Position numbers and translations under genes: made by a program. The notes under the pieces were generated by a model. That model made no database searches, was not told the origin of the DNA, and worked only from the letters and a program-made list of their open reading frames with translations. A stretch of DNA of 64,000 bases from assembly GCF_019112545.1 (NCBI RefSeq), contig NW_025064892.1, positions 911,921 through 975,920 of the forward strand, given 5' to 3'. Positions 12,117 to 64,000 of the stretch are shown one piece after another; positions within the stretch are counted from its first letter, which is position 1, and each line of letters starts with the position of its first letter. The stretch is from Guyanagaster necrorhizus (taxonomy: Eukaryota; Basidiomycota; Agaricomycetes; Agaricales; Physalacriaceae).

Positions 12117-13970
12117 CTACTCCCAGAGCCTCCACAATGCTGAACTCAACTATAACACTCATGACAAGAAGCTTCTGGTCATTTTTAAAGCTTTTAAACA
12201 TTGGTGGCACTATCTTGAAGGCTCTGTGGACTCTATTGATGTTATAACAGATCACAAGAACCTTGAATACTTTGCTATCACCAAAATTCTAACCTGCCAA
12301 CAGATCCACTAGTTCAAATACCTATCCCAGTTCAACCCAGTAATCTGGTTCTGACCTGGAAAACTTGGTGGGAAACCAGATGCACTTATTAGACAATGAG
12401 ATGTCTACCCTAAAAAGAGAGATAGCCAATATGCTCAAGTCAATCCTCACAATTTCCAACTGGTGTTCACCTAAGAACAATTTTTCATATCACTCTATGC
12501 AACCTACCTTGAAGGCCCTATCCTTTGAGCCAGTGCCATCATGGACATTGATAAGCTTCACATTGATATCAAATAAGCACAATCTTCTGACTCTATATTC
12601 TCTGATAGCCTCCACCAGGCTAAGGCCACTTTAGAATCCTCCTCCTCTTAGTGGTCCATTGATGAATCAGACATCCTCTGCTTTGAAGGCTGCATCTATG
12701 TTCCAGAGTCCACAGACCTCTGTCTCTGTATATTATAAAATAACCATAATCATATCTTGGCAGACCATTGTGGTCAAAACTGGACATTAGAGCTTGTCTG
12801 GTGGAATTACACCTGGCCAAAGATGCATGAATATGTTTGACACTATGTTAAGTCCTGTACAGTTTGTGGATGCAACAAGGCACCTAAACACTGCCCCTAT
12901 GAGTTACTCAAATCTCTACCAGTCTCTAAATGGCCATGGGATTCTATTTTCATGGATTTCATTGAACAACTACTGGACTCCAATAGATTTACCACCATCT
13001 TAGTAGTCATAGATCAAGCTAGCAAGCAAGCCATCTTTATCCCCACTCATAACATCATTAACTTTATGGAGCTCATCCAACTTTTCCTTATTTATGTGTT
13101 CTCCAAACATGGGGTATCCAGTCATATCACCTTAGATCATGGCTCTGAATTTGTTTTCCAATTTACTCATGCTTTAGCTATAGCTCTTGACATGGAACTC
13201 CACTTTACTTCTGGTTACCATCCAGAGGCCAATGGACAAACTGAACAGGCAAACCAAACTCTGGAACAGTACATCCACATCTACTGCTCCTACCAACAGG
13301 ATAACTGAGACACCCTCCTACTCATTGCTGAGTTCACATACAACAATGCCCTTAATGCATCCACTGGAATTTCTCCATTTTTTGCCAATAAGAGCTACCA
13401 TCTTAACATCACCATTCACCCTGAAAAGGATATTGCCTCCACTCAGGCCTAAGACTTTGCAGTCGATTTTGATAAACTCCATCAAATATTAAAAGACAAA
13501 ATCTCCAAGGCTCAGGCTCACTATAAGACCCAAGTGGACAAGCATCAGATTCTGGTGCCTCCATTCACAGTGGGAGACAAGGTTTATCTCAGTTCCAAAC
13601 ATATCAAAACCACCCATCTGACCAAAAAACTCTCAGAGAAATATCTTGGCTCTTTTGAAATCATAGTCCAACCAGGTTCTCACTTCTTCATGCTGAGGCT
13701 TCTGCCAGATCTCTGGTCCATTCATCCAGTCTTCCATATGTCACAATTAGAACCTGTAGAAGAAAACACCATCTCTAACCAAATCTGACCACTGCTGCCT
13801 CCAGTTGAAGTCAATGGAGAAGAATATTTTGAAACAGCCTAAATTCTCAACTCTAAACTGAACTGCTGATTCCACTGCCCACTGCTGTACAAGATCCAGT
13901 GGCTAGACTATAAAGGTACCAACAAAGAATTTGCTTGATTATCAGCCTCTGAGTTCTCCACCAATAAATT
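12117..13970 (+). pseudogene. pol: E2 RNase H, integrase and chromodomain
   Basis: RNase H end at about 12120-12300 (SLHNAELNYNTHDKKLL, then VITDHKNLEYF). Integrase zinc-binding part at about 12830-12900 (tail CGCNKAPKHCPYELLK). Catalytic core at 12940-13290, with the first Asp in MDFIEQLLDSNRFTTILVV, the second in ITLDHGSEFVFQF and the Glu in YHPEANGQTEQANQ, so the D-D-E triad is still present. The C-terminal integrase part at 13534-13788 includes VGDKVYLSSKHIK and IHPVFHMSQLEP. A chromodomain-like segment lies at about 13820-13970 (YKIQWLDYKGTNKEFAW). Frameshifts occur near 13310. Chromodomains in this group steer integration to methylated-histone chromatin. Confidence 0.83.
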
Positions 13971-14535
13971 CATTAAAGACTTCCACTATTAATACTCAGA
14001 CAAACCAGGACCCTTGTTCAAAGTCATTCAAATATTCCATTCCTAATACAATGCTACTCTGGACACCACCAGCATCCCACCTTACTATTTCAATTCTAAT
14101 CACTAATTACCATCATTCAATCACTTCTTCTACACTTTCAAAGTCAAAAAATCTTGCAATTACATTTTTGTCCACTACTAACATCTAATGCTCTTTTCTA
14201 TATATATTTTGTACAAAATATTTTTTACAAAGAAGCAGAACCTGAACTCTCCCTCTGCTCCTTCAACTCCTCTATATCCTTATTCAGCCTCTTCAATATT
14301 GCCTCCCAAAGATCCTCCACCTTCTGATCCCTCTCATCCTTGAAAATCAGTCAGATCTTGTTCCAGATCTCCACCTCAGACTCCAAAAACAGCTCTAAAG
14401 GAGATGACATATTGTCAGAACTATAATCGTCTTGAAGACCTGCTATAGTACTGTGAATATCCACCACCTTATCTGCCAACTCATCTATGTGACACATTAA
14501 CTTGTGTATCAATTTTAAATGTTGGTGGAGACTGG

Positions 14536-16353
14536 TGAAGAGAATCTAAGTGCACATAAGGTGAAACTGAATACAGCAGAGCATTATTCACTGACCACAC
14601 TCACACCAACACACACACAAAACTCTTAGTTCATGGAGGGATTATAATATGATAAAAATAGCAATCAACAAATATAATTGTCCTCTTCAATGAGATCATA
14701 GCATATGAACAGTAATAGCATGCTTACAATAGTCCAAGGTCTCTCTAAGTCTCAAAGCTTTTCATTTTATCAGAACAAGAGGTGGCAACAGGTGTTGCCA
14801 GGCCTCAAAGCAAAGGGTACTGCAGCTCAATACAATATGTTGAAACACTCTCACAAAGCTCTCCAAATCATCTTAAGCACAGCTTATATCACCTCAAAAT
14901 CTCTAACACACATAATACATGGCTCAAAGCTTTGCACTCTAAGCAAAAACCAATCACAAGCATATCCACAAATGCCAAAGAGCTCAGATCTCTGTTCATA
15001 AGTTTCTAAACTAATCATAGACCCACAGGATTCAAATCTATGCAATCCAGAGACACAAAACACAATAAAACTCTATCTGACAGACCAAAGGATTTGAATC
15101 TCTGCCAATCTGCGGAAATAACACAAAAGCACATATTAATCAAGCTAAAGGGTTTGAACCTCTGCCACCTGTAGCACCACATGTCACAAATACCTCAAAA
15201 ACTCAAGATGATGCCCTTCAGACACCACTCTCTTATTCTCAGGTTAGAATGCAATTCAAAATCTCTTATCAAATCAGGCTCAAATCCTTCACAAGCTTTG
15301 ATGCCTTGCTTAGTTCTCACAGCTCTCTCTAAGATGTTCAATAATATAGTTATTCTCTCACCCAAAGTTACAAACACAAACCCAGAGCTAGAGTGCAAGG
15401 CTTTCTATGCCCAATACACTACAACTGTAGGGGTTGAAAACTTGTGCTCTACTCATACAATACCATATTTAAATACTCTACTATGATACTTACTAATACA
15501 ATCCTACTATGGTATCTTCAAAGTGCAGGACTCTATGCTAGATCCTGCAGGTATTATTTGTGCACATATCACAGTCACCACACTTATTCTCTTCTGGGCA
15601 AGGACTGTGTCCACTGTTCCTTTGCTAGCTGACATCAGCTAGCTGGCCTCACCAGGTCTGCTTGCTTTCTTATTTCTCTAGTGACATCTCTGACAGTGGT
15701 AAACTGTTCTAGACCCCTAGAGTTATCTCTCATACCAAGAGTCAGCCACAATGGCTATATTCTGCTTTCCTGTATCCAGCCAATCATTCTATCTGACTCA
15801 TCAAAGGTGCTATTTCTCAGTATGATGCAGAGTCCCTCACTGTGTTATGCATGCTAAGGCACCATAAGTATGTGTGCAAGGCTTGAGGCAGTATACATGC
15901 TATTCATTCCTGAGGTAATATTCCTCTACTTATTACTTTGTTATCATCATTCTATTTCTCTATTCAATACTCATTTACTCAGATACCTTTCTTTGGATCT
16001 CAGTTCTCTGTTCTAAAGCATGTCCCATCAGTGCATCAATAGCTATGTATCTTTGATCAATATGATCAGAATTGTCAATTATATTTTGATCATAGTCTTT
16101 TTATTTTTAGCATGTCTTCTCATAATAGTATTAGCACATTTAGGGCCAAGTGCTGGGACCTCACATGCAGCCTAACCTCTCTGGTATTAGTCTGTTACTA
16201 GGCCATGCACTCTGCTTATTGTTACTTCAGTTTAGCATTATGATAGCTAGGTTTTTATGCACTCTAGTCCTATTTTCTGTTACATGCTTACTGGACTGGA
16301 ATGCAGTCTATGTATTTGCAATTTTCACAATTTTACATGGAGAGAGCATGTCA
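14536..16353 (-). repeat. Repeat X2, about 1.8 kb, LTR-like, with TSD
   Basis: The longest uninterrupted X copy. On the minus strand it begins TGACATGCTCTC and ends GATTCTCTTCA. The flanks read actgg|...|ctgg, a 4 bp (or 5 bp, sharing the terminal a) target-site duplication inside exon 2 of the antisense gene. It has no long coding frame. X3 carries unrelated sequence beyond the same end, beginning tctggagccc, like an LTR followed by a primer-binding site. X2 is therefore best read as a solo LTR of a further retrotransposon. Confidence 0.7.
14973..15163 (-). repeat. Tandem array of four tRNA T-arm-like motifs in X2
   Basis: On the minus strand the motif agaggttcaaaccctttag recurs at 15144-15163, 15084-15103, 15022-15041 and 14973-14993, at about 60, 62 and 49 bp spacing. 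The core resembles GGTTCGAAYCC, the B box and T-loop of tRNA genes, with its CG decayed to CA or TG. The flanks can pair as a 5 bp stem. X3 has the same array at 50711-50899. Confidence 0.55.
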
Positions 16354-16525
16354 CTGGCAGAGACCTCCATACTATTAATCATCTTGCTTGCAGTGACACC
16401 TCAGTTGAATAAACAGGTGGTCTTCTTAATCTTGCAACATAGGCAAGTCTGCTCATGCCTGGTGCCTTCAGTGGCCAGACATGCATAACAACAGGCACTA
16501 TCTTGGCAACAGTGCACACAGCTTT

Positions 16526-16574
16526 CTGAGAACAAAAGCTAAATCAAACCACATAAGAAAACCAAGACACTTAC
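16526..16574 (-). other. Intron in the E2 antisense gene (49 bp, phase 1)
   Basis: On the minus strand it runs GTAAGT...CTCAG. Exon 1 ends with one base of a codon (…GGT AAA A). Joining to AA AGC TGT GTG CAC TGT puts the first cysteine half in frame. The same position, phase and near-identical length occur at 18765-18812 and 55009-55057. Confidence 0.72.
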
Positions 16575-17491
16575 TTTTACCATCTAACAACTCTTTGTCT
16601 TCTGCCAGTCCCACCACTTTCAACTTCACCCACTTCTTGAGACTAGCAACCACCTCTGTTTTACTGCCATCCACTATGCTCCTTGATCTGAACTTGTATT
16701 TATGGCCCTTCTCCATCAGATCTGCTACCTTTCTCTTCCTCTCTCACACTCTCTTTCTCCTCTTCAGAGTTCTTTTGGATTCTTTTGACTCATCATCTCC
16801 CTCAGTTCTCTTATCTTGCTCACCATCAGACTCCAGAGGCATATAGCCAGTCACTTTCTTGAAGTGAAGACTGAGACCAGGACTAAACCATTCTGCTAAC
16901 ACTTGACACAGCCAAAAATCAATAGCCTCTGCAGAGGTCATCTGCAACTCATCCTCCATAACTATCCCTTCCTGCCCTACCTCCAAGACTGAAGCCCTCA
17001 CCACAGCCTCCATGGCCTCCCTCTCCTCTGCCTCTCTCTGAGCTGCCTCTCTCAATACCTTCTCTGCCTTCTTAGCCTGCTTTTCCATGGCCTGCCAGAT
17101 CTCCTCTCTCTTCCTCTCCAATTCCTCCTTCTGCTCTCTTTTCTGCACCTTCTAGACCATATGGTCTGCCTGAACCTTTTCCTTCTGCTCCCACTCCCCT
17201 TGCTAGTCCAAATAGCTCTCTACAGCCTCCACATATTCTTCCTCCATGGTCTGTCATTCCAGATGAAATAATTTTTTGGCCTCTTCAGGGCCATCAAGGG
17301 TGGATTCCCTCACCAAAGGCTCAGGAGTATATGAGTGATAATATGCAGTAGGAGGTGACATAGTTAGAGTGATAGTGGTAGTATCTGACCAAGTTGCAAA
17401 AAATTCCCATAGCCATCAACAATCTTCCATGTGAACCCACCAGCCATCAGGATCTGCACTCTTGAGGACAAGAATGCCAACAGGGGGATAC

Positions 17492-17991
17492 TGTTATGCA
17501 TATGCTGCTGGCCTCTATATCACCTCAACCAACCATAAATGCAATCACAGAAACCCACTGGACTCTGACCACTCTCTATTATCTATTAATTTCATTTTCA
17601 CCATTATCATTTCACATCTATATTTCATATTGTAATATCAAGACCCTGAACTTGGTAGCAAATATTGATATTGGAACCCAATGGAACTCAACTCAGAATT
17701 AGCTACTATTAGTATATAAAGCCATGTATAATCATTGTAACTATTCAGTTTGAATATCAACTTGGATAGCCATCTACACTTTGTACTGACTTCAACTCCT
17801 CTCTACCTCATCCATCAGATTCTGCTCTGAAGGATACTCCTCTTCACTCCTCTGATGGAACTCCATTCCATCCATCCAAATCCTTGGGCTCTAACTCAAG
17901 AGTGAAATTGCCAATAGCTTTATTGATGCTCACACACTCTACTGGTCTCTATGCATACACTCAAACCTACTCAATTGGCACATTCCTAACA
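17492..17991 (+). repeat. E2 3' LTR (family 2)
   Basis: 500 bp, tgttatgc...cctaaca. The TATA box and the agtttgaatat start element are again 34 bp apart. It is preceded by a polypurine tract, so it is a true 3' LTR. It abuts the first codons of the E3 antisense gene at 17992 with no visible target-site duplication relative to the 5' flank. Confidence 0.87.
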
Positions 17992-19312
17992 GTATCATCA
18001 CTCATGAACTTCTGAGTCTTTGGTGAGGGAACTCACCCTCAATGGCTCTGAAGAGGCCAAGAAATTATTTCATCTGGAATGGCAAACTATAGAGGAAGAG
18101 TATGCAAAGGCCATGAAAGTCCACTTGGAGTGGAAAAGGGAGCAGGAGAGAGAGGAGAAGGTCCAAGTGGATCATGTGGCCTGAGAGGTATGAAGAAAGA
18201 AGCAAAAAGAGAAGTTGGAGAAGAAGAGAGAGAAAGTCTAGCAGGCAGCAGAGAGACAGGTGAAGGAGGTAGAGAAGATATTGAGAGAGGCAGCTCCAAG
18301 GGAGGCTGAGGAGAGAGAGGCCATGAAGGCCACAGTGAGAGAGGCAGAAACCAGAAATGTGCCACCAGAGGAGTTGGTAATGGAGAGCAGATTGCAAATG
18401 ACCCCCATAGAGGCTATTGATTTTTATCTGCATCAAGTGCTGGTGGAATGGTTTGATTCTAGCCCCAGTCTTTGCTTCAAGAGGGTGACTGGCTATATGC
18501 CTCTGGAGTCTGATGATAAGTAAGGCAAGGGGACTGAGAGAGATGATGAGTCAGAAGAATCTGAGGGGACTCTGAAGAGAAGAAAGAGAGTGTGAGAGAG
18601 GAAGAGGAGAGTAGCAGCTCCAGCAGAATGGAGCCAAAAATGAAAGTTTAAGTCTCAGAGTGTGATGGATGGCAGTGAGGTGAAGATGGTGGCTAGTCCT
18701 AGGAAGAGGGCAAAGTTGGAAGTTGTAGGATCAGTGGAGGGCAAGAAGAAATTGAGTGGTGAAGGTAAGTGTCTTATTATTTCTGGTTGGCTTGTCTTAG
18801 TTCTGTTTTCAGAGAGTTGCATGTGCTGCTGTTAGAATAGTGCACCCTGTTATGTATGCCTAATAACTGAAGGTGCCAGCTGTAGGCAGACTTGTGCCTA
18901 TTGCAAGATTAAGAAGACCACCTGTTTGTTCAATAAGGGCATTAGTGCAAGTGAGGTGATCAGTAGTATGGAGTTCTCTATCAGTCTCCACCAACTTTTG
19001 AAGTTAATACACAAGTTGATGCATTATGTGAATGAGTTGGCAGATAAGGTGGCTGATGTCCACAGTATCATAGTGGGTCTCCAGAATGATTATGAGTCAG
19101 ATGATATGTTGTCTCTCTTAGAGTTGTTTTTGGAGTCTGAATTGGAGGCCTGGAAAAAGGCTTGTCTGCTTTTCAAGGAGGAGAAGGATCAGGAGGTAGA
19201 AGATCTGCAGAAGGCAATGTTGAAAAGGTTGAATGAGGATATAGAGGAGTTGAAGAGGCAGAGAGAGAGTTTGAGTTCTGATGTGAGCCTATCAGGTTTT
19301 GCTTCCTTGTAG
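17992..19312 (+). pseudogene. Antisense Zn2Cys6-like coiled-coil gene of E3
   Basis: Same gene as in E2 and E5, here on the plus strand because E3 lies on the minus strand. The first few codons are lost at the LTR junction. Readable blocks: HLEWQTIEEEYAKAMKVHLE (about 18080-18130), a Glu/Lys/Arg coiled coil to about 18340, EAIDFYLHQVLVEWF and VTGYMPLESDD (18411-18520), a basic region, the intron 18765-18812, then cysteine halves CMCC......C and CAYC......C (18818-18925). The C-terminal coiled coil runs 18980-19312 (LHQLLKLIHKLMHYVNELAD to VEDLQKAMLKRLNEDIEELK), ending at TAG. The final 128 residues are open. Internal stops (for example TAA at 18521) show it is a pseudogene now. Confidence 0.75.
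18765..18812 (+). other. Intron in the E3 antisense gene (48 bp, phase 1)
   Basis: GTAAGTGTCTT...TTTTCAG. Exon 1 ends GGT GAA G; exon 2 starts AG AGT TGC ATG TGC TGC, so splicing creates GAG AGT TGC and enters the cysteine motif in frame. Without splicing the two parts are in different frames. Confidence 0.75.
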
Positions 19313-19559
19313 GAATTTTGTATGAAATATATATAGAAAAAGGCATCAGATATTAGTAGTGGAGAAAAAAAAATGTAAATATAAGGTTTTGACTTTTGAA
19401 AGTGTAAAAGAGATGATTAGAATGGTAGTAATTAGTGGTTAAAATTGAAATAGTAAGGAGGGGTGCTGGTGGCCTTCAGAGTCATGTTGTATCAAGAATG
19501 GAACAATTGAGTGACTTTAAATAAGGGTCCTGGTTTGCCTGGGTATCAATAGTAGAGTT

Positions 19560-22500
19560 CTTCAATAAATTTATTGGTGGAGAACTCAGAGACTGGTAAC
19601 TAAGCAAACTCTTCATTGGTATCTTTGTAGCCTAGCCACTGGATCTTGTACAGCAGTGGGCAGTAGAACCAGTGATCCAGCCTAAAGTCAAGGATTTGGG
19701 CTATTTCAAAATATTCTTCTCCATTAACTTTGGCTGGAAATAATGGTGGTTGGATTCAGTTAGAAATGGTGTTTTCTTCTATGGGTTCCAATTGTAACAC
19801 ATGGAAGACCAGATGAATAGACCAGAGATCTGGCAGAAGTCTCAGTGTGAAGGAGTGGAAACTCAGTTAGGCTATGATTTTGAAAGGACTAAGGTATTTC
19901 TCTGAGAATTTTCTGGTTAGATGGGTGGTTTTAATATATTTAAAACTGAGATAGACCTTGTTGCCCACTGTAAACAGGGGCATCAAAATCCAATGCTTGT
20001 CTGCTTAGATCTTGTAGTGAGCTTGAGCCTTGGGGATTTCATCTTTTAATACTTGATAGAGTTCATCAAGGTCAACTGCAAAGTCTCAGGCCTGAGTGGA
20101 GGTGATGTCCCTTTCAGGATGAGTGGTGATGTTAGGGTGATAACCCTTGTTGGTGAAGAATGGGGAAATCCCAGTGGATGCATTAGAGGCATTGTTGTAG
20201 GCAAATTCAGCAATAGATAAGAGAGTGTTTCAGTTGTCCTGCTGATAGGAGCAGTAGATTCAGATGTATTGTTTCAGAGTTTGGTTTGCCTGTTCAGTTT
20301 GTCTGTCAGCCTCTGAATGATAACCAGAAGTAAGATGGAGTTTCATGTCAAGAGCTAAGACTAAGGTGCAAGTAAATTGGAAAATGAATTCAGAACTGCA
20401 ATTAGATGTGATGTGACTGAGTACCTCATGTTTGGAGAAGACATGGATAAGTGGATGAGCTCTACAGAGTTAATGGTGTTGTGAGTGGAGATGAAGATGG
20501 CTTGCTTGCTAGCTCAGTTTATGACTACTAAGATAGTGGTAAATCTATTGGAGTCTGATAGTTGTTCAATAAAGTCTATAGAAATGGAATCTCATGGCCA
20601 TTCAGGAACTGGCAGAAGTTTGAGTAACCCATAGAGGCAGTGTCTAGATGCATTATTGCATCCACAAACTGTGTAGAACTTAATATAGTATCAAACATAT
20701 TCATACATCTTTGGCCAGATATAGTTCTGCTAGACTAGTTCCAATGTCTGGTTTTGACCAAAGTGACCTGCCAAGATGTGGTCATGATTGTTCAGTAGTA
20801 TATAGAGATAGAGATCATTAGAGTCTGAGACATAGATGCAGCCTTCAAACTAAAGGATGTTGGATCTATCAATGGACCACTGAGAGAGGGAGGATTCAGA
20901 AGTGGCCTTAGCTTAATGGAGGCCATCAGAGCACATAGGGTCAGACAATTATGCTTGTTTGATATCAGTGTGAAGTTTGTCAATATCTATGATGGCACTA
21001 GCCTATAGGGTGGTGCCTTCAAGATAGATTGCATGAAGTGATGCAGAAAGTTGTTTTTAGATGAACACCAGTTGGAAATTATGAGAGTTGACTTGGACAT
21101 ATTGGGTATTCCTCTCTTTAAGATAGACATTCCATTATCTAGTGAGCACATCTGGTTTTTCATTAAGTTTTCCAGAGCAGAACTGAATTACTAGATTTAA
21201 CTAGGATAGGTATTTAGACCAGTGAATCTGTCAGTGGATTAGAATCTTGGTGGTGGCAAAGTATTCAAGGTTCTTGTGGTCTGTTACAACATTGATGGAG
21301 TCTGTGGAGCCTTCAAGATAGTGCTGCCAATGTTTAAAGGCTTCAAAAATAGCTAAAAGCTTTTTATTATGAATATCATAGTTGAGCTTGGCATTGTGGA
21401 GACTCCAGGAGCAGAAAGCAATGGAGTGAATTTCACCATCTTCCAGATAGATGAAGAGGATAGCTGTGATTGCATAATTGGAGACATCAGTTTCCATCAC
21501 TATCTTTCAATCAGAGACTCAGTGAATAAGGATGGAAGCATGTGTAAAGGCCTGTTTCAACTCATTGAAGGTGGCCAAGTATTTGTCATCAAATTTCTAT
21601 AGAGTTCTCTTGCAGGTAAGTTATGTAAGGAGAAGAATGATATCACTATATTTGTGTATGAAGCAATGGTAGAAGTTGGTGAAGCCAAGAAAAGATTGGA
21701 TGTCCTTGACCTTTCATAGCATTGGCCAGTCAACAATGGCCTTGACCTTTTTTTCAGATCTGTGAAGTCCTTCAGATAATAGGATGTAGTCTAAGTATTC
21801 CATGGAATTCTGATTGAATTCATATTTGGAACCCTTGCAGTAGAGTCTATTAGCTCTAAGCCTGCATAGAATCTCACAAACATGTTTCTGGTGATCTTCT
21901 GGGTTGTTGGAATATATGAGGATGTTATCAAGATAGACTGCTACTGATATATCGAGAATGTCCAAGAATATATCATTCACAAATTATTAGAATGCCACTA
22001 GATCATTTATAAGGCCAAAAGACATGATATGCCATTCAAAGAAATTATAACAGGTCTAGAAGGCTGTTTTCCCTTTATCTCCTTTAGCTATGTGAATATG
22101 ATGGTAGGCATGTTGCAGGTTGAGCTTAGTGTAGATGCATGCAGAGCAGGCAGAGTTGAGGAGGTCAGAAATGAGAAAAAGAGGGTAGTGATCCTTCTTG
22201 GAGATTTTGTTCAAGCTATGGTAGTTAACACAGAGTCAAAGTTCATCAGTCTTTTTCTTGACAAATAAGACTGGAGCTCTGTGCAGAGAGCAGGATAAAG
22301 TAATAAACCCATTGCATAGATTATCATTAATAAATTCTCATAAAACTTTGAGTTCAGATTCTGAGAGAGAATAAATGGGTTCAAGTGGTGGAGATGTTCC
22401 TTCCTCAAGGTTAATTTTGAGGTTATATGGCCTGTATTCAGGTAGCTTTTTAGAGAGAGTATCGCTGAAGACATCTGCAAAATCATGGTACTCTACTGGT

Positions 22501-25211: not shown

Positions 25212-26873
25212 AATCCAGACTCTACCTCAATTTAATTACTTTAATCTTGACTTTTAACTCTTCCACTCAATTGTCTAGTCAATATTATATACATGTTTTT
25301 TTTTTTCACTTTATCTAAGGCCTGGCTGTTTACTACATTATATACAAATATATATATGATGGATCAGAAGATGGAAGCAATATCTGATAGACTCATTTCA
25401 CTTTTATTTTCTGCTTTCCTGAAATCTAAATGTCTCTCTCTTTCTTAACTCTTCTATATTCTTATTTAAGTACAACTTTATTATTCTCCTCAATTCTTCC
25501 ACTTTGGACTGCTTCAAGCATCAGAACTTTGCATGAGATATCACCTAAGCCTTCAAATTTGAGAAGATAAGCTCAGTCAGTGATTTGTAGTCATCAAAGA
25601 GGTCCTTTTCATTCACTTGGATGCAAGTCTTGTCTCAACCAGATCTGCCAGTTATTATGCATGGATAGTAGAAGGTGTTATTCTGCTAATACCTCATACA
25701 ATGCTCTGGCTAAAGAAATATTAGCATTGTCACAACCTGCAATAATGACACTGACTTTCATCAAATAATTCTCTCTCATTCTTTATTGGGTTTAAGACCT
25801 CCACCTTCATCTTTTTTTAGGACTTACTCTGACATCTATCTCACTGTAGATGTCTTTTTTTCTCTCTGAAGCACTCTTATACTCTTTTGCTTTATCTTCA
25901 CTCTCAGTTTTTTCATTATCCTCATTTCTTTTAGAAGCCACTTTGCTCTGCTTCACTAGCTATACATCAGATCTGACAGAATTCAAACCTATCTCTGCCA
26001 GCATCCTCTTATATATAGTCTATTATATATGTCAGAGTCTATACATCATTTGTCCTTTGACTTTATCTCTCATTTTTGTTTTCTACAGTCTCTACTCTCT
26101 CTCTCATCTCTCTTGTTATCTGTTTCCTCTCTGTTTTCTCAGCCTCTACCAGCCTCTGTATGTTCTTCTCCATTCTCAGCCTTTTTTGCTTTCACTGAAG
26201 CAGCTTTTTCTAAGGCCAGCCTCTCTTACTCCTTTCTCTTCTTTGCTGCTGTCTTTAATATCTCTATTCTCTTTATACAGGCTATATGCTCAGCCTTCAT
26301 CTTTTTCTCTTACTTCTTCTTTGCTCTCTCCTCTTTTTACACCTCATAATGCTCTATGGCCTCTGTATGTTTCTCTTCAGCTGCAAGCTGCTTCAGATGA
26401 AAGTTCTCTACATCTTTCTCATCAAGGTTCCTTGGAGTTGAGGTAGCCACATACAGCTCAGAGATAATAGAAAGGCAGTATGAGACAGTCATATATATTG
26501 GCTAGTAAAGAAAGATAATCTGAAGAGATGATAATGATTATTGTTGAAGTTGCAAAAATCCCATGCTAGATTCATTTTTTCTATATGCTTCTCCATTGGC
26601 TATTAGGATCTGCACTCTTGAGAGCAAGAATGCTGAGAAAAGGATACTGTTATGCATATGCTGACAGATTCCACTTCACAATCACTTCAATTTCACTCTA
26701 ATAATCTAAAAGCCAGCACTGGTCTCCCTTAGACTCTGTTTTTCTCTACTCTATACTATTCCATTTGAATTATTTGAGCTTTAACTTAAGGGTGATATTG
26801 CTAATAGCCTTATTAACACCCACACACTTTATCAGTCTTTACATATGCATTTAACTTCATCTTATTAGCATGT
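25212..26873 (+). mobile_element. Family-2 element tail E6 (+): antisense gene and damaged 3' LTR
   Basis: Contains the region after the chromodomain, a divergent antisense gene (25390-26492, minus) and an LTR fragment at 26648-26873. The fragment starts tgttatgcatatgctg but is only 226 bp because of internal deletion, and is cut at its end by family-1 LTR G. The polypurine tract gagaaaaggatac precedes the LTR. The order pol end, antisense gene, LTR repeats that of E2 and E5. Confidence 0.7.
25390..26492 (-). pseudogene. Divergent antisense coiled-coil gene of E6
   Basis: Minus strand. A possible ATG at 26492 leads to VATSTPRNLDEKDVENFHL and an Ala/Glu/Lys-rich coiled coil (LALEKAASVKAKKAENGEE). 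This parallels the N-terminal half of the E2 and E5 genes. Near 25400-25500 VEELRRIIKLYLNKNIEELR matches their C-terminal coiled coil. The cysteine region (about 25600-25790) is too damaged to confirm, with only a partial CHYC remaining. The long plus-strand frame over 25850-26446 is the mirror of this purine-rich coding strand and not a gene. Confidence 0.5.
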
Positions 26874-53591: not shown

Positions 53592-54091
53592 TGTTAGAAA
53601 CATGTTAATCAAGTGGGTTTGAGTGCATGCACAGAGACTGATGGAGTGTATAAGCATTAATGAAGCTATTGGCAATGTCACCCTTAAATTGGAGCCCAAG
53701 GATCTGAATAGACAGAACAGAGTTCTGTTGGAAAAATGAACTGAAGTATCCTTTAGAGCAAAATCCAACAGATGAGGTAGGGAGAAGTTAAAGTGAGTGC
53801 AAAGTGTAGATGGCTTATCCAAGTTGATATTCAAACTGAGTAGTTACAATAGTTATACATAGCTTTATATACTAATGGTAGCTAATTCCAAGTTAGGTTC
53901 CATTGGGTTTCAATGTCAATATTTGCTACTGAGTTTGAGGTCTAGATATTACAATATGAAATATGGGTGTGAAATGATAATGGTGAAAATAAAATTAATA
54001 GGTAATAGAAGTGGCCAGAGTCTGATGGGTTTCTGTGATTGAATCTGTGGTTGGTTGAAGTGACATGGAGACTGGCAGCATGTGCATAACA
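53592..54091 (-). repeat. E5 3' LTR
   Basis: 500 bp. Minus strand tgttatgcacatgctgc...tttctaaca, with TATATAAAG and agtttgaatat in the standard 34 bp spacing. The polypurine tract (minus strand aacagagagatac) lies to its right. Confidence 0.85.
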
Positions 54092-54221: not shown

Positions 54222-55570
54222 ATGTCATCTTCCACTATGTATTGTCACTCATATACTCCTGAGCCTTTGGTGAAGGGATCTATCCCCAATGGCCCTCAAG
54301 AGGCTAAGGAATTATTTTGTCTGGAATAGCAGACCATAGAGAAAGAGTATGTAGAGGCTGTAAAAGTCCACTTAGAGTGGAAAAGAGAGCAGAAAAGAGA
54401 GGAGAAGGTCTGGGCAGACCATGTGGTCTGAAAGGCATAGAGAAAGAAGCAGCAAGAGAGATTGGAGAAGAAAAGGAAAAAGATCTGACAGGCAGTAAAG
54501 AGGTAGGTGAAAGAGACAGAAGAGGCATTGAGAGAGGTAGCTTGAAGGGAGACTGAGGAGAGGGAAGTGGAAGAGGCTGTGGTGAGGGCTTCAGCCTCAG
54601 AGGTAGGGCAGGAGGAGATAGTTATGGAGGATGGATTACAAATGACTCCTGTGGAGGCTATTGATTTTTGTCTGCATCAAGTGCTAGCAGAACAGTTTGA
54701 TTCTGGCTGTGGTCTTCATTTCAAGAGAGTGACTGGTTATACACCTCCAGAGTCTAATAATGAGCAGAGCAAGGGAATTGAGAGAAATGATGAGTCAGAA
54801 GAATCTGAGAGGACCCTGGAGAGGAGAAAGAAGGTGCAAGAGAGAAAGAGAAGGATGGCAGATCTGATAGAGAAGAGCTATAAATGCAAGTTCAGATCAA
54901 GGAGTATAGTGGATGACAGTAGGACAGAGGTGGTTGCTAGTTCTAAAAAGTGAGCAAAGTTGGAAGTTGCAGGGCTGGTAGAGAGTGAAGAGTTGTTGGA
55001 TGGTGAAAGTAAGTGTCTTGGTTTTCTTGCATGGTTTAACTTAGCTTTTATTTTCAGGGAGTTGTGTGTGCTGTCATCAAGATGGCACATGGTGTTATGC
55101 ATGACCAGTAACTGAAGGCACTGGTTGAGGGCAGACTTGCTCTCACTGCAAGATCAAGAAAACTGCTTGTTCATTCAACAAAAGCATCACTGCAAGTGAG
55201 GTGATCAGCAGTGTGAAGGTTTCTGCCAGTCTCCACCAGCTTTTGAAGTGAATACACAAGTTGATGCATTATGTGAATGAGTTGGCAAACAAGATGGCAG
55301 ATGTCTACAGTACTGTAGTGGGTCTTCAGGATGATTACAGGTCAGATGATATGTCATCTTTCTCAGAGTTGTTCTCAGTCTAAGTTGAAGGTCTGGAAGA
55401 AGGCTCATCTGCTTTTTAAGGATGAGAAGGTGGAAGATCTGCAGAAAGCAATGTTGAAGGGGCTGGATAAGGATATAGAGGAGTTAAAGAGACAGAGGGA
55501 GAGTTCTAGTTCTGATGCAGGCCTATTGGATTCTGCTTCCTTGTACAGATTTTGTATGAAATATATATAG
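54222..55570 (+). pseudogene. Antisense Zn2Cys6-like coiled-coil gene of E5 (best copy)
   Basis: Start ATG at 54222, MSSSTMYCHSYTPEPLVKGS, shared with E2. A Glu/Lys/Arg-rich coiled coil follows (54317-54560). The frame is then open from 54567 to the TGA at 54951 and contains EAIDFCLHQVLAEQF, FKRVTGYTPPESNNEQ and the basic LERRKKVQERKRR. Intron 55009-55057 (phase 1). Exon 2 begins RSCVCCHQDGTWC, then CSHCKIKKTACSFNK: two C-x2-C-x6-C halves about 17 residues apart, as in Gal4-type zinc clusters but with a longer linker. The C-terminal coiled coil includes LHQLLK, IHKLMHYVNELANK and LDKDIEELKRQRE. Several stops at CGA or TGG sites make it a pseudogene. Confidence 0.77.
55009..55057 (+). other. 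Intron in the E5 antisense gene (49 bp, phase 1)
   Basis: GTAAGT...TTTTCAG with a plausible branch site tttaac at about 55036. Exon 1 ends GGT GAA A and exon 2 begins GG AGT TGT GTG TGC TGT, which joins to AGG AGT TGT in frame with the cysteine motif. Confidence 0.78.
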
Positions 55571-55639: not shown

Positions 55640-58600
55640 GTAGAAAGGGTGATTGAAACAGTATTCAGTAGTTAGAATTGAAATAGTAAGGTGGGGCTCT
55701 GGTGGCATCTGGAGTAGTGTTGTATCAAGAATAGAATGATTGAGTGACTTTAGACAAGAGTTTTGGTTTGTCTGAGTATCAATGGTGGAATTCTTCAATA
55801 AATTTGTTAGTAAAGAACTTAAAGGCCAGTAACCAAGCAAACTCTTTATTGGTACTTTCATAGCCTAGCCACTGAATCTTGTACAGCAGTGGGCAGTGGA
55901 ACCAGCATCTAGCTTAGAGTCAAGAATTTGGGCTATTTCAAAATGTTCTTCTCTGTCAACTTTAACTGGAGGTGAAAGTGGTTGGATTCAGTTAAAAATG
56001 GTGTTTTCTTTTATGGGTTCCAATTGTAACACATGAAAGACTGAATAAATGGACCAGAGATCCAGTGGAAGCCTCAGAGTAAAGGAGTGGGAACCCAGTT
56101 GAGCTATAATTTTGAAAGGGCAAAGATATTTCTCTGAGAATTTTCTGGTCAGACAGATGGTTTTTATATATTTGGAACTGAGATAGACTTTGTTGCCCAC
56201 TATGAACAGGGGCACCAGAATCTGATGCTTGTCTGCTTGGATCTTATAGTGAGCCTGAACCTTAGAGATTTCATCTTTTAATACTTGATGGAGTTCATTG
56301 AGGTCAACCACAAAGTCTCAGGCCTGAGTGGAGGCAATGTCTCTTTTGAGATGAATGGTGATGTTAGAGTAGTAACTCTTATTGGTGAAGAATGAGGAAA
56401 TTCTGGTGGACACATTAGAGGCATTGTTGTAGGCAAACTCAGCAATGGATAAGAGGGTGTCTCAGTTGTTCTGCAGATAGGAGCAGTAGATGCAGATGTA
56501 TTGTTTCAGAGTTTGGTTTGCCTGTTTGGTTTATTCATTGGCCTCCAGATAATAACCCAAAGTAAGGTGGAGTTCTATATTAAGAATGGTGGCTAGAGCA
56601 TGAGTAAACTGGGAGATAAATTCAGAACTGCAATCAGATATGATGTGACTGAGTACCTTATGTTTGGAGAAAACATGGATAAGAAAAAGTTAGGCAAGTT
56701 CTGTGGAGTTAATGGTGTCATGAGTGGAGATGAAGATGGCTTGCTTGCTAGCTCAGTCTATGACTACTAAGATGGCAGTAAATCTGTTGGAGTCTGGTAG
56801 TTGTTTAATGAAGTCTATAGAAATAGAATCTCATGGCTGTTTGAGAACTGGCAGAGGTTTGAGTAACCCATAGAAGCAGTGTCTAGATGCCTTATTGCAC
56901 TCACAAACTGTGCAGGACTTAATATAGTGTCAAACATATTCACACATCTTTGGCCAGGTATAGTTCTGCCAGACTAGTTTCAATGTCCAGCTTTGACCAA
57001 AGTGATCTGCCAAAATATAGTCATGATTGTTCTGTAGTATATGGAGACAGAGATCATTGGAGTCTGAGATATAGATGCAGCCTTTAAATTAAAGAATGTT
57101 GGATTTGTCAATGGACCACTGAGAGAGAGAGGATTCAGAAGTGGCTTTGGTCTGGTGGAGGCTATTGGAGAATGTAGAGTTAGAGAATTGTGCTTATTTG
57201 ATATTAGTATGAAGTTTGTCAATATTCATAATAGCACTAGCCTATAGGGTAGGGCCCTCAAGATAGGTTGCACAGAGTGATGTGGAGAGTTGTTCTTGGG
57301 TGAATATAGATCAGAAATTGTGGAGGTTGACTTAGGCATATTGGCTATCTCCTTTTTTAAAGTAGATGTCCCATTGTCTAGTGAGCACATCCAATGTTCC
57401 ATCAAGTTTTCCAGGGTGGAACCAAATTACTAGGTTGAACTGAGATAGATATTTGGACCAGCAAACCTGTCAGCAGATTAAAATCTTAATGGTGACAAAG
57501 TATTCAAGGTTCTTATGATCTGTTATGATATTGATGGAGTCCATAGAGTCTTCAAGATAGTGCCACCAATGTTTAAAGGCTTCAAAAATGGCTAGAAGCT
57601 CTTTGTCATAGGTGTTATAGTTGAGTTCAGCATTGTGGAGGCTCTAGGAGTGAAAAGTGATGGGGTGAATTTTACTATCTTCAAGATAGATAGACAGGAT
57701 AGCTGCAATTGCATAATTGAAGGTGTCAGTTTCCACTACTATCTTTCAATCAGAGATCCAGTGGGTAAAAATAGAGGCATATGCAGAGGCCTGTTTCAAT
57801 TTGTTGAAGGTGGCCAGGCATTTGTCATTAAATTTCTATGGAGTTCTCTTGCAGATGAATCATATAAAAGAAAGAACAATATTGCTATATTTGTATATAA
57901 AGCAATAGTAAAAGTTGATGAAGCCAAGAAAAGATTAGATGTCCTTGATCTTTTGTAGCATTGGCCAGCCAACAATAGCCTTGACTTTTTCTTCAGACAT
58001 GCAAAGTCCTTCAGATGATAGGATGTAGTCTAGATATTCCATGGAATCCTGGTTGAATTTGCATTTGAAACCTTTGCAGTAGAAGCCATTAGCTCTGAGC
58101 CTGCATAGGATCTCATGAACATGTTTCTGGTGATCTCTCAGATTGTCAGAATATATGAGGATGTCATTAAGATAGACTACTACTGATATGTCAAGCATGT
58201 CTAAGAATATATCATTCACAAATTGTTGAAATGCCACTGGAGCATTTGTGAGGCCAAAGGGCATAATGTGTCATTTGAAAGAACCATAATAGGTTTGGAA
58301 GGCTGTTTTTCATTTATCTCCTTTAGCTATGCAAATAAGATGGTAGGCATGTTATAGATTGAGCTTGGTGTAGATGTGCATAGAGCAGATAGAGTTGAGG
58401 AGATCAGAAAGGAGAGAAAGAGGATAGCAATCCTTCTTAGAGATTTTGTTTAGACTATGATAGTTGACACAAAGTCAGAGTTTACTGGTTTTCTTCTTGA
58501 CAAATAGAACCAGAGCCCTATATGGAGAGCAGGACAGAGTGATGAACCTATTGCATAGGTTATCATTAATAAACTCTCATAGGGCCTTGAGTTCAGATTC

Positions 58601-63599: not shown

Positions 63600-64000
63600 T
63601 ATATATTTTATATAAGTTTTTTTTTTCTTTCTACAATTATAAGAGTCTAGCATCTGATAGATTCACATCAAAATCTGAGCCTTTCTCTTACTTCCTCAAC
63701 TTCTCTATATTCTCATCCAGTCTTTTTAATATTGCTGCCTACAAGTTCTCCACCTTCTGATTCTTCTCATTTTTGAAGATCAGATAAGTTTCTCTCTATA
63801 CCTCTAATTCAGACTCTAAAAACAACTTCAAAGGAGATAATATATCATCTGACTTATAATCATTCTAGAGTCCTGCTACAATATCATGGACATTTGTCAC
63901 CTTATCTGCCAACTTGTTCATGCAACATCTCAACTTGCATATTAATTTTGAAAGTCTGTGAAGGCCAGTGGAGACTTCTATGCTACTAATCACCTCACTT
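63600..64000 (-). pseudogene. Antisense coiled-coil gene of E7, C-terminal part
   Basis: The complement of 63660-63960 matches the C-terminal coiled coil of the E2, E3 and E5 antisense genes (the strand reading VEDLQKAMLKRL-like and IHKLMHYVNELAD-like sequence). It runs off the window before the cysteine motif and intron. This is a fifth copy in the same antisense position after the chromodomain. Confidence 0.6.

What the first reader, a model, noticed from the sequence alone, without database searches (positions are those of the whole stretch)
54222..55570. Family-2 chromoviruses carry an antisense gene with a Zn2Cys6-like motif between pol and the 3' LTR
Seen: five family-2 copies (E2 14215-17361, E3 17992-19312, E5 54222-55570, E6 25390-26492, E7 63600-64000) have the same gene, always opposite to gag-pol and always between chromodomain and 3' LTR. 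In E2, E3 and E5 all six cysteines of two C-x2-C-x6-C halves survive, flanked by coiled coils and a basic stretch. Known: Zn(II)2Cys6 clusters followed by coiled coils are fungal transcription-factor architecture, and some plant LTR elements carry antisense genes. Inference: a retrotransposon-borne regulator, perhaps a captured host gene, that could act on the LTR or on host silencing.
Basis: partly seen in the sequence, partly recalled or inferred. Interest (0 to 1): 0.88.

Follow-up and report, generated by a model that had tools for sequence, protein, structure and literature searches.

The report
Antisense zinc-cluster gene in fungal retrotransposons
Many copies of a fungal jumping gene carry a second, backward-running, spliced gene whose conserved protein looks like a fungal gene-regulating factor, so the element may bring its own regulator.

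Summary
A chromovirus family in this 53 Mb fungal genome carries a two-exon gene, antisense to gag-pol, between chromodomain and 3' LTR. Of 60 copies compared, all 60 keep the intron's GT...AG, 44 keep all six cysteines (23 of 24 GC-rich copies), and 8 are open from ATG through the splice as they stand. Transversions shared by copies are depleted in amino-acid changes against private ones in this frame only (57 copies: 34:29 against 78:13, p=2e-5; five other frames p≥0.41). A second family encodes a roughly one-third identical protein with the same intron position and cysteine pattern. A database search found 22 homologues, 12 named Armillaria. The module, C-x2-C-x6-C-x(8-14)-C-x2-C-x6-C, has an NLS-like stretch before it and a coiled coil after it. 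It aligns in register with Zn2Cys6 domains (hhalign 75%), but none of 11 proteins scanned matched Pfam Zn_clus and AlphaFold left it unresolved. Best reading: a nuclear DNA-binding regulator working like HTLV-1 HBZ or maize Grande gene23. Transcription, zinc and DNA binding are untested. Antisense genes are known in plant elements and in fungal Boty, so this is a new variant of a known kind.

The parts
53592..54091 (+). E5 LTR (the 3' LTR of the minus-strand element), TGTTAG...TAACA in antisense-gene orientation
   Evidence: blastn with the 498-bp LTR of another copy, 80% identity
54092..54221 (+). Spacer between LTR and ATG of the antisense gene; the element's polypurine tract lies at its LTR end on the minus strand (by eye)
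   Evidence: sequence; spacer 123 bp and 92% pairwise identity in GC-rich copies
54222..55008 (+). Exon 1 of the antisense gene: N-terminal TPEP motif, long charged helix, acidic stretch, NLS-like basic stretch
   Evidence: tblastn with another copy's exon 1: 63% identity over 262 aa; decayed here
55009..55057 (+). Intron, GTAAGT...TTTTCAG
   Evidence: splice sites kept in 60 of 60 copies; lengths vary, also by steps that are not multiples of three
55058..55546 (+). Exon 2: six-Cys module, coiled coil, acidic tail; stop codon lost in E5
   Evidence: tblastn, sequence
55063..55170 (+). Cys module C-x2-C-x6-C-x14-C-x2-C-x6-C (two stop codons inside it in E5)
   Evidence: sequence; conservation
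55764..55987 (-). E5 chromodomain, end of gag-pol
   Evidence: tblastn E 2e-25
16353..17361 (-). E2 antisense gene, exon 1 to start of exon 2
   Evidence: blastn 76%
14236..14535 (-). E2 antisense gene, rest of exon 2, separated by about 1.8 kb
   Evidence: blastn 75%
13783..14013 (+). E2 chromodomain
   Evidence: tblastn E 3e-32
17502..17991 (-). E2 3' LTR, abutting E3
   Evidence: blastn 83%
17992..19312 (+). E3 antisense gene, truncated at its 5' end
   Evidence: blastn 76%; exon 2 at 18812-19312
19525..19755 (-). E3 chromodomain
   Evidence: tblastn E 6e-33
25390..26492 (-). E6: old, divergent copy of the gene from another family
   Evidence: DNA match to a family-B gene, E 1e-7; weak protein match to family A
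63640..64000 (-). E7 antisense gene, exon 2 part, cut by the window end
   Evidence: tblastn 52% over 120 aa
63208..63426 (+). E7 chromodomain
   Evidence: tblastn E 7e-33

Best explanation
The element carries an accessory gene of two exons, read from the strand opposite to gag-pol and starting about 125 bp from the inner edge of the 3' LTR. SHOWN by sequence: it is a spliced-looking, selected protein gene that is co-inherited with the element and is old enough to be shared by more than one element family and by Armillaria. INFERRED: it is transcribed from an antisense promoter in or next to the 3' LTR; the ~430-aa protein enters the nucleus through its KKRVKLE-like stretch, dimerises by the coiled coil after the Cys module, and binds DNA with the zinc-bound six-Cys module. 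It then tunes transcription or persistence of the element itself, through its LTRs, in the manner of HTLV-1 HBZ and maize Grande gene23.
For: Open frame, conserved intron and six Cys across copies. Selection specific to this frame. Protein conserved in a second family, with codon-position identity 0.55/0.56/0.39 in exon 1 and 0.54/0.66/0.39 in exon 2. Gene and pol distances correlate (Mantel r 0.80, 0 of 2000 permutations as high, 54 of 60 copies). 22 homologues, with six Cys in 11 of 11 that hold both halves. Six Cys in register with Zn2Cys6 domains: hhalign 75%; AlcR the top PDB hit though weak (E 0.24). A coiled coil follows the module. A basic KR[VAL]K-E-type stretch in 17 of 22 homologues (in two of them the scan's first match lay elsewhere, the stretch itself is seen).
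Against: No Pfam Zn_clus match in any of 11 proteins scanned at E up to 1 or 10. AlphaFold leaves the module unresolved: pLDDT 35-41 for the long-loop form, and a weak hairpin at 55-71 for the short-loop form. The basic half is the second, whereas in classical clusters it is the first (recalled). 13 of 60 copies lack ATG at the aligned start (9 of them ATA), and some copies carry a length change by the start that puts the ATG out of frame. No RNA data. The selection test is not significant in the 24 GC-rich copies alone, and the pol control is not significant once six copies with unrelated or missing pol-side sequence are left out (p=0.21, few events).
Confidence: 0.6

Rival explanations
1. 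The protein is a nuclear accessory of the replication or integration complex (nuclear import, cDNA or chromatin tethering) rather than a transcription regulator.
For: Same anatomy (NLS-like stretch, long helices, Cys module); the plant aORF review discusses such a role for these proteins (passages of PMC7264820).
Against: Such parts are normally made from the sense genomic RNA (recalled); an antisense gene with its own intron suggests separate control. No direct evidence either way.
Confidence: 0.2
2. The module is a zinc ribbon (two C-x2-C knuckles) with extra cysteines, binding RNA or DNA or a protein partner, not a binuclear Zn2Cys6 cluster.
For: AlphaFold shows a weak strand pair in the short-loop homologue P0013; sub-threshold Pfam zinc-ribbon matches for P0013 and P0016 (E 0.54 and 0.32); ribosomal eL43, a zinc ribbon (recalled), at E 0.15 in the PDB scan.
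Confidence: 0.2
3. A host gene was captured by, or a copy was domesticated from, the element; the Armillaria proteins are host genes.
For: Several homologues are annotated as ordinary genes on megabase contigs; few places in this genome match the short-loop P0013 group well (a capped list).
Against: At least five paralogues in A. ostoyae alone; gene and pol distances correlate in this genome. The Armillaria context could not be read, and no LTR match was found in the 901 bases held of the one short-loop locus.
Confidence: 0.15
4. Only the antisense RNA matters (dsRNA or silencing); the open frame is a by-product of a purine-rich strand.
For: With composition correction off, a reverse frame scored up to 117 bits against 119 for the gene frame.
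Against: With composition correction the antisense frame stands out (exon 1 65 bits against at most 30, exon 2 97 against at most 39); frame-specific selection; introns of differing length between frames that stay open.
Confidence: 0.04

Closest known systems
[quoted passage not shown] PMC11963269: passages)
   Same: [quoted passage not shown] Grande's product is nuclear and has its own promoter; Retand's TRP28 is predicted to bind DNA.
   Different: Plants; Retand is not a chromovirus; TRP28 (PF04195) was not among the Pfam matches here; here a spliced gene with a six-Cys module.
Botrytis Boty antisense gene brtn (Zhao et al. 2011: title and citations only; the paper is not held)
   Same: Fungal chromodomain element with an antisense extra gene (gag-RT-IN-CHROMO plus brtn: PMC4227169 passages).
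   Different: Ascomycete; the brtn protein could not be compared, so homology is open.
HTLV-1 HBZ and HTLV-2/3/4 APH proteins (PMC10186651 passages)
   Same: Antisense, from the 3' LTR, spliced, nuclear or partly so; HBZ has a bZIP domain.
   Different: No sequence relation claimed; bZIP rather than a cysteine module; animal retroviruses.
Fungal Zn2Cys6 factors (Gal4, AlcR)
   Same: C-x2-C-x6-C twice; loop of 8-14 within the known range (recalled); coiled coil downstream; AlcR ends its module in C-T-F-N against C-S-F-N here.
   Different: Basic residues sit in the second half; no Pfam Zn_clus match; no other fungal transcription-factor domain in the Pfam scans.

Membership tests
Zn2Cys6 (Zn_clus, PF00172) | Six Cys as C-x2-C-x6-C-x(5-16)-C-x2-C-x6-8-C (pattern recalled) | tested here: met
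   11 of 22 homologues match, that is 11 of 11 with both halves, loop 8 or 14; 44 of 60 element copies keep all six Cys
Zn2Cys6 (Zn_clus, PF00172) | Pfam profile match | tested here: not met
   No PF00172 match for 11 distinct proteins; UniRef names 4 of 22 homologues 'Zn(2)-C6 fungal-type'
Zn2Cys6 (Zn_clus, PF00172) | Profile similarity to solved Zn2Cys6 domains | tested here: inconclusive
   hhalign 74.6%, E 2.7e-5 for a single comparison; PDB profile scan AlcR E 0.24
Zn2Cys6 (Zn_clus, PF00172) | Binuclear zinc cluster fold and DNA binding | not testable with these tools
   AlphaFold pLDDT too low
LTR-element antisense accessory gene (aORF-3R) | Antisense to gag-pol, between pol and 3' LTR | tested here: met
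   for the window copies, E2 and E5 on both sides
LTR-element antisense accessory gene (aORF-3R) | Present in most copies and co-inherited with pol | tested here: inconclusive
   Co-inherited: Mantel r 0.80 on 54 of 60 copies. Many copies: 265-270 first-look candidates per query, the 40 scored all matching. The share of all elements that carry it was not counted
Retand-type (TRP28, PF04195) | TRP28 domain | tested here: not met
   No PF04195 in Pfam scans of 11 proteins
Boty brtn | Sequence homology to BRTN | not tested
   sequence and paper not held
HBZ-like antisense regulator | Antisense transcript from 3' LTR and nuclear action on 5' LTR | not testable with these tools
   no RNA or cell data

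The most novel reading that the evidence does not exclude
Mushroom-forming-fungus chromoviruses carry their own zinc-cluster transcription factor on the antisense strand: a fungal counterpart of HBZ that binds the LTRs (or host promoters) and sets the balance between silencing and expression of a family of a hundred or more copies, with Armillaria genes as possible domesticated descendants.
Probability: 0.3. Interest if true: 0.82.

Novelty: new variant of a known kind. Interest (0 to 1): 0.62.

Why it matters
If true, a retrotransposon brings a DNA-binding regulator built on a very common fungal transcription-factor plan, expressed from the opposite strand. That gives a concrete molecular handle on what antisense accessory genes do, a question the plant aORF review leaves open (PMC7264820 passages). 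It would also explain some 'Zn(2)-C6 fungal-type' proteins in Armillaria annotations as transposon genes.

Tried and rejected
Chance ORF on a purine-rich strand: rejected. With composition correction off, a reverse frame scored as well as exon 1 (117 against 119 bits), so that first test was discarded in favour.

C-to-T changes as a selection test: unusable. Decay is strongest at CpG (43% and 38% lost against 9-19% elsewhere), and shared C/T changes lean towards nonsynonymous (private 36:37, shared 357:183, p=0.006), as recurrent decay would give.

Pol as a positive control: 240:43 against 12:10, p=0.0014 with all 60 copies, but the private count was inflated by six copies with unrelated or missing pol-side sequence; without them 64:20 against 9:6, p=0.21. 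So the control is inconclusive.

First homologue search with exon 2 as region: none at E<=10. Armillaria-like homologue P0022 seemed to share upstream element sequence with family B: not significant (123 and 32 of 1000 shuffles as high), dropped. LTR-like sequence beside the short-loop locus L074, thought seen by eye: no blastn match, dropped.

NCBIfam scan of three homologues gave nothing of use.

Papers: in the listings (at most 20 titles each, of up to 696 papers) I saw no title or abstract start on this gene in mushrooms; only open-licence PMC papers were searched. Zhao 2011 is not held.

Full report
WHAT WAS CHECKED. The window is G000:C13:911921-975920 of a 53.3 Mb, 109-contig genome. 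A DNA search with the E5 interval found 41 matches at 76-100% identity, from 266 first-look candidates of which 40 were scored. Two further queries scored 40 of 265 and 40 of 270, all matching. A 24-base pattern over the second Cys half has 97 places with up to 3 mismatches, against 0 for the reversed control. So the gene sits in a family of about 100 copies at least, and perhaps some 270.

COPIES USED. I compared 60 copies: 58 fetched plus E3 and E5. 24 of the 60 are GC-rich (>0.49 over the aligned stretch); the rest have lost CpG heavily (obs/exp 0.15 against 0.62).

ANATOMY. Reading against gag-pol from the 3' LTR (498 bp in one copy): spacer of 123 bp (130 in E5), ATG, exon 1 (787 bp in the reference copy), intron of about 49 bp, exon 2 (500 bp), then a spacer and the chromodomain on the other strand. 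A polypurine tract lies at the LTR end of the spacer (by eye). All 60 introns begin GTAAGT and end AG (the script flagged none). In one subgroup their length changes by steps that are not multiples of three, yet copies of that subgroup are open on both sides. Eight of 60 copies are open from ATG through the splice as they stand, one of them with a withheld end. Protein: N-terminal TPEP motif, a charged helix of over 100 residues (modelled in two homologues), an acidic stretch, a KKRVKLE-like basic stretch, the six-Cys module, a coiled coil (PDB profile hits to GCN4-type coiled coils) and an acidic tail.

SELECTION. Private transversions stand for decay after insertion; shared ones (3 or more copies) for change in the replicating lineage. 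All 60 copies: private 116 nonsynonymous-or-stop to 27 synonymous, shared 35:29, p=1.6e-4; five control frames p≥0.28. Without three copies with many private changes (57 left): 78:13 against 34:29, ratio 0.20, p=1.9e-5; five control frames p≥0.41. Against this: in the 24 GC-rich copies alone the test is not significant (13:10 against 10:6, p=0.75). Taken together their transversions (23:16) differ from the private yardstick of all 60 (p=0.006), but the two sets overlap. C/T changes point the other way, which I read as recurrent decay. The pol end as a positive control gives p=0.0014 with all 60, but p=0.21 (64:20 against 9:6) once six copies with unrelated or missing pol-side sequence are left out; it is inconclusive. 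Stops per 100 codons in the GC-rich copies: 0.23 in frame, 1.23-5.25 in the other five.

DEEPER CONSERVATION. A second family (14 places from one query; five read: L069-L073) encodes a homologue at 28-44% identity per aligned piece, in the same frame. At the same exon junction 2 of 5 keep GTAAGT and 3 of 5 have a changed donor. Of the Cys module, L072 keeps six, L070 and L071 have one Cys changed to Tyr each, L073's alignment starts after the first, and in L069 only the first half is readable. With composition correction the antisense frame scores 65 bits (exon 1) and 97 bits (exon 2); the best control frames reach 30 and 39. Codon-position identity is 0.55/0.56/0.39 and 0.54/0.66/0.39. E6 is a further, old relative. 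A third form with an 8-residue loop is seen at L074. Gene and pol distances correlate (r 0.80, 54 of 60 copies).

OTHER GENOMES. The protein database gave no hit for exon 2 as region, one for an alignment of five copies (P0001, E 4e-40) and 22 for the next round. Eleven of 22 hold both Cys halves and match C-x2-C-x6-C-x(8 or 14)-C-x2-C-x6-C; the others are short gene models or lack part of the module. In eight module sequences the six Cys, K-K and F-N-K are invariant. Several homologues have a C-terminal extension that family A lacks. Whether the Armillaria genes lie in elements could not be read.

IS IT ZN2CYS6? For: spacing, coiled coil behind it, hhalign 75% with six Cys in register, AlcR as first PDB hit (E 0.24), UniRef's naming of 4 of 22. 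Against: no Pfam Zn_clus match in 11 proteins, basic residues in the second half, no usable model, and weak zinc-ribbon hints. I call it Zn2Cys6-like and do not file it as a member.

HOW IT PROBABLY WORKS. Shown by sequence: a selected antisense protein gene with a conserved intron, co-inherited with the element. Inferred: antisense promoter near the 3' LTR, nuclear entry, dimerisation, zinc-dependent DNA binding, regulation of the element. The closest workings are HTLV-1 HBZ (PMC10186651 passages) and Grande gene23 (nuclear, own promoter; PMC7264820 passages). A role in the integration complex, or a zinc ribbon, remains possible.

WHAT IS KNOWN. [quoted passage not shown] PMC11963269: passages) and, in fungi, for Boty (brtn), a chromodomain element (PMC4227169 passages; PMC8365987 passages; Zhao 2011 itself not held). 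In the listings of nine open-licence searches I saw no account of this gene in mushrooms; that is the top of each listing in one library only.

Noticed in passing
window 17991/17992: E2's 3' LTR abuts the truncated 5' end of E3's antisense gene; no LTR of E3's own was found there.
   Followed up: partly
window 14535-16353: About 1.8 kb separates the two pieces of E2's antisense gene inside exon 2.
   Followed up: no
genome-wide, 60 copies: Old copies decay mainly at CpG (43% of C and 38% of G lost, 9-19% in other contexts), suggesting methylation-linked or RIP-like C-to-T decay.
   Followed up: partly
L040, L044, L037, start of exon 1: A length change by the first ATG puts it out of frame in some copies while the rest of exon 1 stays open; start site or function in that subgroup is unclear. 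13 of 60 copies lack ATG at the aligned start.
   Followed up: partly
P0002-P0006, P0008, P0009, P0012; diverged in P0013, P0016, P0017: Several homologues carry a further conserved C-terminal region (FWYG...EWQFWKDYL...VEDSD) not seen in family A.
   Followed up: no
G000:C46:29931-30600 (L074): Piece of a relative with the short Cys loop, close to the Armillaria P0013 group (55-59% identity); its element context is unread and no LTR match was found in the 901 bases held.
   Followed up: partly
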